Below, one piece after another: positions 60,287-63,575 of a stretch of DNA of 64,000 nt (positions within the stretch are counted from its first letter, which is position 1; each line of letters begins with the position of its first letter). This DNA comes from Enterococcus viikkiensis (lineage in GTDB: Bacteria; Bacillota; Bacilli; Lactobacillales; Enterococcaceae), in contig NZ_BJDW01000001.1 of assembly GCF_005405345.1 (NCBI RefSeq), positions 124,001 to 188,000 of the forward strand, written 5' to 3'. The notes beneath the pieces are model-generated. The model saw only the letters and a program-made list of their open reading frames with translations, made no database searches and had not been told where the DNA came from. A program made the position numbers and the translations under genes.

Positions 60287-61654
60287 TTATCTCCTTACCA
60301 GATCATTTAAGCAGCAAATATTTCGATCTGTTGTAATAAACACGATATGATCCTTCAACCGAATTTCAGTATCACCTTTTGGAATAACAAAACCACGTTC
60401 TCTTGAGATTGCCGCAATCAATACATTGTCCTTCAATTGAACCTCAGAGACCTTTTTGTCTAGGAACCTTGACTGAGGCGTAACCACAAACTCCATCGCT
60501 TCAACATCATCATTCACTAATCGATGCAAGGTCTTCACACTGCTATCATCATCCTTATTATTTTTTGCTCGAATGAAGCGCAAGATATGACCAGCGATAA
60601 TATTTTTCGGAGAGATCACGCTATCGATATCCAATTGATCCAAAACATGAACGAAATTCATTCGCGTCACTTTCGCCACGGTTTTTTTTGCGTTCATTTG
60701 CTTGCCGTAAAGCGAAATTACGATATTTTCTTCATCTAATCCCGTTAATGCCACTAACGCATCAATCGATTCGATCCCTTCTTCAATCAATACCTCTTCA
60801 TCGCTGCCATCCGATTCAATGATCGTCGCTTCAGGCAGCTTTCTTGAAAGCTCCAAGCAACGCTTCGGATTGTTCTCAATAATTTTTACTTGAATCCCAT
60901 GTTCAACCAATTGGCGTGCCAAATAAAATGCGATCCGACCGCCACCGACAATGATAATTCGCTTGGTCTTTTGTTTAAATAAATTGATATCCTGACAAAA
61001 ACGTACCAAGTCTCGGTGCTGACCCATCACATGAATTCTATCGTTCTGTTCAAGCACGAAATCTCCATCTGGAATAATCAGTTCTTCCTTGCGGCGAACT
61101 GCACAAATTAGCACATTTGATTTAGAAACCTTTCCTAAACGATTCAATGGTATGCCGTTTAGACGAGTATTCTCCTTTAGTCGAAATTCTGCCAACTCGA
61201 TCTTGCCGCTAACAAAGGTATCCACCTTAAAAGCCGAAGGGAAAAGCAAGATCCGCCGTATTTCATTTGCTGCTTCTAATTCGGGATTAATGATCATGGA
61301 AATTCCTAATTGATCCCGCATAAAGGAACGTTGCTTCAAATAGTCAGGATTCCGAACACGAGCAATGGAATTTTTGGCCCCCATTTTTTTAGCCATCAAA
61401 CACGCTAAAATATTCAGTTCATCTGTTTCTGTCACAGCAATGACAATATCCGCCTCGCTAACTCCGGCTTCCATCAAGATGTCATAGGTGGCACCATTGC
61501 CAACGATCCCCAACACATCGTACTGATTCACGATTGCTTCGACCTTTTCAGCATGTAGATCAATGATGACCACATCATAATTATAATCTTCATTAGATAA
61601 ATGCTGCGTCAGAGATTTCCCGACCTTGCCAGCACCTAAAACGATAATTTTCAT
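60287..61654 (-). CDS. trkA: Potassium uptake regulatory subunit TrkA
   Basis: A 455-residue tandem RCK protein: two Rossmann domains (VLGAGKVGKSLTQHL at residue 4; IVGGGRIAFYLARQL near residue 228), each with a TrkA-C domain after it. It binds NAD(H) or ATP and gates TrkH. The first domain has the intact GxGxxG; the second reads GGGRIA. AAGGAG precedes the ATG. Translation may be coupled to a short frame ending in ATGA at its start. The long leader (promoter 62092) contains the tandem repeats. Confidence 0.95.
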   Translation of the reverse strand: MKIIVLGAGKVGKSLTQHLSNEDYNYDVVIIDLHAEKVEAIVNQYDVLGIVGNGATYDILMEAGVSEADIVIAVTETDELNILACLMAKKMGAKNSIARVRNPDYLKQRSFMRDQLGISMIINPELEAANEIRRILLFPSAFKVDTFVSGKIELAEFRLKENTRLNGIPLNRLGKVSKSNVLICAVRRKEELIIPDGDFVLEQNDRIHVMGQHRDLVRFCQDINLFKQKTKRIIIVGGGRIAFYLARQLVEHGIQVKIIENNPKRCLELSRKLPEATIIESDGSDEEVLIEEGIESIDALVALTGLDEENIVISLYGKQMNAKKTVAKVTRMNFVHVLDQLDIDSVISPKNIIAGHILRFIRAKNNKDDDSSVKTLHRLVNDDVEAMEFVVTPQSRFLDKKVSEVQLKDNVLIAAISRERGFVIPKGDTEIRLKDHIVFITTDRNICCLNDLVRR

Positions 61655-61710
61655 TTTTTCTCCTTATTCGTTTCAATGGATTCATTTTTCTCACGAAAAA
61701 TGAGTTTCAT
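61651..61710 (-). CDS. Short repeat-encoded frame overlapping trkA start (19 residues)
   Basis: MKLIFREKNESIETNKEKK, the truncated third copy of the repeat frame. Its stop overlaps the trkA start as ATGA, and the trkA ribosome site lies in it. Translation is unproven; it has no clear ribosome site. Confidence 0.3.
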   Translation of the reverse strand: MKLIFREKNESIETNKEKK

Positions 61711-61751
61711 TCGAATGCCGTATATCATTCAACTAAACCGTTCACTTTTTT

Positions 61752-61859
61752 TTAACTGTAATTTTTAGATGGTTCGTCTTGTTTATAAATTACTAAAGTT
61801 GAACTGACATCCTTATTCGTTTCAATGGATTCATTTTTCTCATGAAAAATGAGTTTCAT
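61752..61859 (-). CDS. Repeat-encoded small frame, copy 2 (35 residues, frameshifted)
   Basis: Begins MKLIFHEKNESIE like its sister frame; one base lost from an A-run near the end changes the frame and it stops early (PSKNYS). No clear ribosome site. May be a decaying copy. Confidence 0.3.
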   Translation of the reverse strand: MKLIFHEKNESIETNKDVSSTLVIYKQDEPSKNYS

Positions 61860-61877
61860 TCGAATGCCGTATATCAT

Positions 61878-62009
61878 TCAACTAAACCGTTCGCCTTTTT
61901 TTAACCGTAATTTTTTAGACGGTTCGTCTTGTTTATAAACTACTAAAGTTGAACTGACATCCTCACTCGTTTCAATGGATTCATTTTTCTCACGAAAAAT
62001 GAGTTTCAT
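61878..62009 (-). CDS. Repeat-encoded small frame, copy 1 (43 residues)
   Basis: An unbroken frame starting MKLIFREKNESIE and ending KKLRLKKGERFS; soluble, charged, no known family. It spans the junction of two repeat units. No good ribosome site precedes the ATG, so translation is uncertain. Confidence 0.35.
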   Translation of the reverse strand: MKLIFREKNESIETSEDVSSTLVVYKQDEPSKKLRLKKGERFS

Positions 62010-62091
62010 TCGAATACCGTATATCATTCAACTAATTTTGTTAAATAAATCGCAAAACTAAATTAACTTTCTCAGGACATTCTTAACCCTC

Positions 62092-62120
62092 ATTCTAGCT
62101 TTTTATACAAGGGAAAACAA
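62092..62120 (-). promoter_or_regulatory. Probable trkAH promoter
   Basis: -35 TTGTTT (62115-62120), 17-bp spacer, -10 TAGAAT (62092-62097). This gives a leader of about 430 nt that includes the whole repeat array. From 62121 to 62207 nothing else is seen. Confidence 0.6.
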
Positions 62121-62254: not shown

Positions 62255-62373
62255 TTAAATAATTGTGGTAACAATCGTGATTGCCCCTAAAATGACTCCT
62301 AGCACATTCGCTATAATAATGAGTATATTTTCTTTTGCACAGAAATATGGATTACCTGTTCTTTCTTGTCCAT
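62255..62373 (-). pseudogene. Small membrane protein frame with an apparent frameshift
   Basis: GAGAGGTG stands 5 bp before an ATG that opens MDKKEQVIHISVQKK and stops after 20 residues (62311). In the adjacent frame the sequence continues as ENILIIIANVLGVILGAITIVTTII to a TAA at 62255, a clear membrane helix with no start codon of its own. One extra A in the A4 run near 62333-62336 would join the two into a 39-residue single-helix protein. A terminator follows at once. It could be a pseudogene, a sequencing error, a frameshifting gene, or chance. Confidence 0.45.
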
Positions 62374-63479: not shown

Positions 63480-63575
63480 TCCTTATATAATATACTTAGA
63501 CTCGCCATCCCAAGTGACCGAAGTACTTACTACTTGTTCTGTGCGGTTGTAGCTGTGGGTTCCACAATTACAACA
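63480..63575 (-). ncRNA. Ribosomal L21 leader RNA
   Basis: The leader of rplU folds into a stem (TTGTA..TGTGG / CCACAG..TACAA, loop AACC) followed by a smaller hairpin (GTACTTCGGT region). Position and shape fit the Firmicute L21 leader, thought to mediate feedback by L21. Confidence 0.65.

What the first reader, a model, noticed from the sequence alone, without database searches (positions are those of the whole stretch)
61662..62035. Tandem-repeat leader of trkA with repeated small reading frames
A 149/150-bp unit present 2.5 times fills the leader of the potassium-uptake operon. On the minus strand each unit opens a frame starting MKLIF[RH]EKNESIE: 43 residues intact, 35 after a 1-base loss, and 19 overlapping the trkA start (ATGA). 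Each unit also has the same hairpin. This could be a leader RNA or peptide that counts repeats to set trk expression, or a recent unstable duplication of the 5' region. I know of no described element like it.
Basis: seen in the sequence. Interest (0 to 1): 0.8.

Follow-up and report, generated by a model that had tools for sequence, protein, structure and literature searches.

The report
Ribosome-site-docked repeat family of enterococci
The repeat in front of the potassium-uptake gene is one copy of a large, apparently undescribed family of structured repeats that sit exactly at the ribosome-binding sites of dozens of unrelated genes in enterococci, so it is not a potassium-specific counter but probably a general piece of RNA machinery or a tamed genomic parasite.

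Summary
In detail: 149/150-bp units at 61661-62068 (minus strand), slightly longer than reported, between a conserved trkA promoter and the trkA start. It is not specific to trk. The same unit occurs about 75 times in this genome and in all 20 genomes of the genus searched (up to 137 or more), and reaches 5 of 17 Enterococcaceae genera. Each unit has a bulged stem (P1), an A/T-rich hairpin (H2) and a tail ending AAGGA. Both stems covary strongly. Of 66 arrays examined, 49 end 2-15 nt (mostly 6-12) before a start codon on the same strand, their last AGGA serving as that gene's Shine-Dalgarno; 13 others begin right after a T-run, usually an intrinsic terminator's. Copy number varies between strains (E. 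raffinosus trpB 2 or 4, cydD 1 or 3) and species (trkA 3, 4 or 0). The gene-proximal copy diverges about 3% between sister species, the outermost copy 10%, synonymous sites 23%, so the proximal copy is constrained. The small reading frames are not conserved. Best reading: an interspersed, tandem-prone repeat domesticated as a translation-initiation or mRNA-stability module. It behaves like BOX/STAR repeats but its docking on ribosome-binding sites is unusual. No Rfam match or description found. Function and dispersal are inferred or unknown.

The parts
61661..62068 (-). Array of three units in the trkA 5' leader
   Evidence: TRF; covariance-model hits 61661-61809, 61810-61959, 61960-62068
61661..61809 (-). 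Unit 3 (gene-proximal, 149 bp); such last copies are about 3% diverged from E. devriesei over the last 75 nt at six sites
61810..61959 (-). Unit 2 (150 bp)
61960..62068 (-). Unit 1 (outermost), 5' half of stem P1 degenerate
   Evidence: model hit of 77 bits; sequence
61797..61809 (-). P1 5' strand of unit 3 (TGTCAgTTCAACT, bulged G)
   Evidence: alignment and covariation
61723..61734 (-). P1 3' strand of unit 3 (AGTTGAATGATA)
61681..61704 (-). H2 hairpin of unit 3 (CTCATTTTTC gtga GAAAAATGAA)
   Evidence: covariation
61660..61665 (-). AAGGAG: 3' end of the array plus one base = Shine-Dalgarno of trkA
   Evidence: same arrangement at 49 of 66 arrays
62092..62097 (-). -10 TAGAAT of the inferred trkA promoter (-35 TTGTTT at 62115-62120, spacer 17), present also in species without the array
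   Evidence: conservation by eye; not called by the consensus scan
60287..61654 (-). trkA
   Evidence: PF02254 and PF02080
58835..60274 (-). trkH
   Evidence: PF02386

Best explanation
The trkA leader repeat is one site of an Enterococcaceae-wide interspersed repeat family. One unit is about 100-160 bp: stem P1 (about 12 bp, bulged G, variable apical loop of about 10-75 nt), a linker, hairpin H2, and a tail ending in AAGGA. Units lie in sense orientation immediately upstream of start codons, often between cistrons of an operon, so that the tail supplies the Shine-Dalgarno of the next gene. A second subtype follows terminator T-runs. Shown: membership, structure covariation, location, orientation, copy-number change, and constraint on the gene-proximal copy. 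Inferred: the unit folds in the mRNA and works as a cis-acting translation-initiation or mRNA-processing/stability module for the next gene; copies rise and fall by recombination or slippage between the repeats, and upstream copies decay. Unknown: how it reaches new genes.
For: About 75 copies in this genome, all 20 genus genomes, 41 of 105 family genomes in 5 of 17 genera. Location: 49 of 66 arrays end 2-15 nt before a start codon on the same strand with AGGA fused to it, and 22 of 24 in other loci of the family, before mraY, plsX, gyrA, mnmG, kup, zwf and others (gene names read from sequence, not profile-searched). Covariation over 109 copies: 93.8% of cells paired (shuffled 81.8%), 270 double changes against 70 +/- 10, score 0.347 against at most 0.112 when slid; RNAalifold finds the same two stems, G bulge included. 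Orthologous units between this species and E. devriesei: P1 stem 4.3%, linker+H2 6.2%, tail 1.1%, P1 loop 12.7%, against 23.2% at 4-fold sites of 156 genes; last copies 3.1% against first copies 10.3%. Strain-level copy change: trpB 2 or 4, cydD 1 or 3, PTS 1 or 2.
Against: No transcript, processing or expression data. Sites turn over: trkA is empty in 12 genus genomes and E. gilvus lacks the element at three E. raffinosus sites, so no gene is known to need it. Predicted Shine-Dalgarno accessibility is hardly changed by the element (0.47 native, 0.43 with shuffled upstream sequence). Target genes share no obvious function. The low divergence rests on 8 ortholog pairs (6 for first against last), the tail includes the Shine-Dalgarno, and exchange between copies could lower it. 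The preference of stems for G-U over A-C mismatches, expected for RNA, is weak (about 50 to 35).
Confidence: 0.55

Rival explanations
1. A purely selfish or neutral non-autonomous repeat (MITE- or BOX-like). Insertions survive only where harmless: after terminators and just upstream of genes, where the element's AGGA end restores the Shine-Dalgarno. Constraint reflects only that Shine-Dalgarno region and exchange between copies.
For: Site turnover between species; unrelated target genes; tandem growth and decay of outer copies; a tail-like remnant without the rest at the E. gilvus PTS site.
Against: Divergence of P1 stem and linker+H2 in the gene-proximal copies (4-6%) is far below synonymous sites (23%) although these lie outside the Shine-Dalgarno. 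Orientation is sense at nearly all sites. No terminal inverted repeats or target duplication could be defined, and no IS200/REP-type transposase (PF01797) is found in this genome or in G003, G007, G010, which are rich in copies.
Confidence: 0.33
2. The structure matters as DNA, not RNA: palindromes recognised by a recombinase or nucleoid protein, or hairpins that cause replication slippage.
For: Exact-unit copy changes between strains; mismatches of the A-C type are almost as common as G-U.
Against: Sense orientation and fusion to the Shine-Dalgarno; G-U exceeds A-C in H2 (22 to 9); no candidate enzyme found.
Confidence: 0.09
3. A trk-specific leader RNA or peptide that counts repeats to set potassium uptake.
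For: Leader position and repeated frames.
Against: Dozens of sites unrelated to potassium; frames and start codons not conserved; accessibility independent of copy number; 12 genus genomes have trkA without any repeat.
Confidence: 0.02
4. Assembly or sequencing artefact.
For: The window comes from a 45-contig draft; repeats can be mis-assembled, and two contig ends lie in the repeats (C5:1 and C4 end).
Against: Same sites and units in E. devriesei and in E. raffinosus megaplasmid records described as complete.
Confidence: 0.01

Closest known systems
STAR elements of staphylococci (PMC3532100)
   Same: Interspersed intergenic tandem repeats; loci differ between species; arrays expand and contract while the sequences at each locus stay distinct.
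   Different: From my own knowledge: STAR repeats are a short G+C-rich motif with spacers. Here the unit is an A+T-rich double hairpin of 100-160 bp whose end is the Shine-Dalgarno of the next gene.
BOX elements of Streptococcus pneumoniae (PMC3049150)
   Same: Composite structured repeat, variable number of an internal unit, over 100 copies, slow turnover, incidental reading frames.
   Different: BOX is over-represented between convergent genes, which its authors take as evidence against an upstream regulatory role; the present family sits directly upstream of start codons. No boxA/boxB/boxC modules seen.
Efa-1 of Enterococcus faecalis (PMC2267715)
   Same: Intergenic repeat, 163 nt, 65 members, predicted pair of adjacent stem-loops.
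   Different: The genome that looks like E. faecalis by Ref1C score (G020, 149.8 bits) has no match to the present model even at E up to 1. Relationship unresolved.
ERIC, BIME and Correia elements
   Same: Structured repeats that can lie in operons and alter mRNA processing (as reviewed in PMC3049150).
   Different: Not docked on Shine-Dalgarno sequences (own knowledge); no sequence relation tested here.

Membership tests
BOX (S. pneumoniae) | boxA-boxB(n)-boxC modular sequence | not tested
   BOX sequences were not aligned; the unit here is one repeated module
BOX (S. pneumoniae) | Enrichment downstream of genes / between convergent genes | tested here: not met
   49 of 66 arrays lie directly upstream of a start codon
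Rfam RNA family (riboswitch, ribozyme, leader) | Score at or above the gathering threshold of any of 4227 models | tested here: not met
   Only a tRNA and the L21 leader in the window; nothing over threshold in the repeat
REP/RAYT or IS200/IS605-type elements | Y1 transposase present in the genome | tested here: not met
   PF01797 absent in own genome, G003, G007, G010
MITE | Terminal inverted repeats and short target-site duplication | tested here: inconclusive
   No inverted repeat joining the unit ends; 5' flanks repeat the element tail at many sites, but that tail consensus occurs almost only at elements, so it is a partial copy rather than a host duplication
Efa-1 (E. faecalis) | Sequence homology to Efa-1 | tested here: inconclusive
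   No R1 match in the E. faecalis-like genome G020; Efa-1 sequence not available
Leader peptide / upstream ORF regulation | Conserved start codon and reading frame | tested here: not met
   No start codon in 42 of 117 scored type-A copies; peptides end at different places in different frames
Tandem-repeat (VNTR) locus | Copy number differs among strains of one species | tested here: met
   E. raffinosus trpB, cydD and PTS arrays; not tested at trkA within one species

The most novel reading that the evidence does not exclude
A family-wide cis-acting RNA that spreads between genes as a repeat and installs itself as the ribosome-binding region of each: a mobile translation-initiation module, maintained by selection at the gene-proximal copy and tuned by tandem copy number.
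Probability: 0.3. Interest if true: 0.8.

Novelty: new variant of a known kind. Interest (0 to 1): 0.6.

Why it matters
Bacterial interspersed repeats are usually viewed as parasites tolerated in neutral places. This family, with up to well over 100 copies per genome, ends on the ribosome-binding site of many core genes in several Enterococcaceae genera, covaries in structure and is constrained at the copy next to the gene. If functional it is a large unannotated layer of post-transcriptional control; if not, it shows how a parasite can hide by mimicking a ribosome-binding site. Copy number varies between strains, so effects are testable with natural variants.

Tried and rejected
Rfam at gathering and permissive thresholds: nothing credible (the CRISPR-DR7 hits at E 1.5 are only the H2 hairpin). 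IS200/REP transposase as mobiliser: absent from several copy-rich genomes. Target-site duplication read from the 5' flanks: the flanks resemble the element tail, and that tail consensus is found almost only at elements, so they are partial copies. Leader peptide: rejected. Repeat counting through Shine-Dalgarno occlusion: not seen in folding. Internal promoter in the unit: considered from the GATATACG stretch, not conserved in the T-run subtype (inspection). Clean young insertions between this species and E. devriesei over 300 kb: none of the start-codon type found; species-specific arrays were of the T-run or a third subtype with messy junctions. Ref1C was used as a marker to find E. faecalis. 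Literature searches found no description of the family. Limits: genome searches score at most 150 candidates per genome, so high copy numbers are lower bounds; gene names outside the window come from reading the translations or from PLSDB annotation.

Full report
Observation. The repeat is present as described, and the array is a little longer than reported: three units at 61661-61809, 61810-61959 and 61960-62068 on the minus strand, the outermost with a degenerate 5' end. A promoter-like TTGTTT-17-TAGAAT lies just upstream and is kept in relatives that have no array, so the array sits in the trkA leader (judged by eye, the consensus scan did not list it).

It is not a trk feature. A 150-base probe finds 30 places in this genome and a covariance model (R1) finds 75. 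Most of the strong sites are small arrays of 2-4 units, copies within a site mostly 90-100% alike (down to 67% at glmU), copies at different sites 63% on average and at most 83%. One relative (G003) is E. devriesei DSM 22802, identified because its contig 1 has the length of NZ_JXKM01000001.1; the window's own species is close to it, 6.8% diverged in coding DNA.

Anatomy. Each unit reads TGTCAgTTCCACT, a loop of very variable length, AGTGGAATGATA, TACGGCNTGAGAATCAAA, CTCATTTTTC..GAAAAATGAA, and a tail such as TCCATTAAAACGAATAAGGA. RNAalifold recovers the two stems with the bulged G. Over 109 copies 17 of 20 pairs show double changes, 270 cells against 70 in shuffles. In the stem P1 the second pair is mostly G-U. 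Mismatches lean to G-U over A-C only modestly, so covariation shows a stem, with a weak lean to RNA.

Location. Of 66 arrays, 49 end 2-15 nt, mostly 6-12, before the start codon of an open frame on the same strand, and the last AGGA with the following G or GG is that gene's Shine-Dalgarno (21% of random positions pass the looser start-codon test alone). Genes include trkA, aroK, asp23-like, deoD, punA, purM, dagK-like, hslV, glmU, thiI, prfA and pstB (read from the translations). In other loci of the family 22 of 24 arrays do the same, before mraY, plsX, gyrA, mnmG, kup, zwf and others. Thirteen arrays start directly after a T-run, usually of an intrinsic terminator (TTTT|TGCGAG..), and end differently (..GCTAGC).

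Dynamics. In E. raffinosus megaplasmids the trpF-trpB array has 2 units in ATCC 49464 and Er676 and 4 in CX012922 and F162_2; cydB-cydD has 1 or 3; a PTS site has 1 or 2. E. gilvus has short intergenic gaps (37-47 bp) at all three, with a tail-like remnant at the PTS site. At trkA this genome has 3 units, E. devriesei 4, and the other 12 genus genomes with trkA none. At the Zn-ribbon gene site the two newer units carry a different P1 loop from the old unit but the same tail, so copies can be mosaic. Two asp23-site units are identical over 155 bp.

Constraint. Between this species and E. devriesei, eight orthologous units (seven gene-proximal, one older) differ at 4.3% of P1 stem sites, 6.2% of linker and H2, 1.1% of the tail and 12.7% of the P1 loop, against 23.2% at 4-fold degenerate sites of 156 genes. 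Over the last 75 nt at six sites, gene-proximal copies differ by 3.1% and outermost copies by 10.3% with many gaps. This argues that the copy next to the gene does something, and that outer copies decay. Exchange between copies could contribute.

Function. The reading frames are not conserved: 42 of 117 scored copies lack the start codon, and peptides end at different places. Predicted Shine-Dalgarno accessibility does not depend on copy number. I therefore commit, at moderate confidence, to an mRNA-level module that shapes translation initiation, processing or stability of the next cistron. That step is inferred. The main rival is a neutral repeat that survives where its end can replace a Shine-Dalgarno. 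How new sites are reached is unknown; Y1 transposases are absent in several copy-rich genomes.

Comparison with known elements. It behaves like STAR (PMC3532100) and BOX (PMC3049150) repeats, but BOX is enriched between convergent genes, not at ribosome-binding sites. Efa-1 of E. faecalis (PMC2267715) is a possible cousin, not detected by the model in the genome that looks like E. faecalis. No Rfam family matches. Literature was searched only in the open PMC set held here.

Noticed in passing
window 62255-62373 (-): Remnant of a small gene between rpmA and trkA. A longer, apparently open frame at the same place in another genus genome (L058) reads like a SemiSWEET-type small membrane protein; here most of the middle appears deleted and the frame is broken (read by eye, no family search).
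   Followed up: partly
window 63488-63558 (-): Ribosomal protein L21 leader (RF00559, 63.6 bits) upstream of rplU.
   Followed up: no
L113:7724-7825 and L116:19423-19525 (E. devriesei contig 1); also L151:1651-1753: A third subtype lies inside a longer shared sequence (AGAAAGGCTTTCGCGAACTCCCTCAGC ... GCTGAGCAATCAGACCAAAC) present at two E. devriesei sites and absent from the matching places here; it might be a larger composite mobile repeat.
   Followed up: partly
L140, L143, L147, L148, L149, L157: Arrays after T-runs mix TGCGAG- and TGTCAG-type units and often end in a partial copy of the P1 5' strand, the mirror image of the start-codon arrays, which begin with a partial tail.
   Followed up: partly
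L186, L088, L091, L094: Four species of another genus (g4) carry the element directly before mraY, a candidate for long-term retention at one gene.
   Followed up: no
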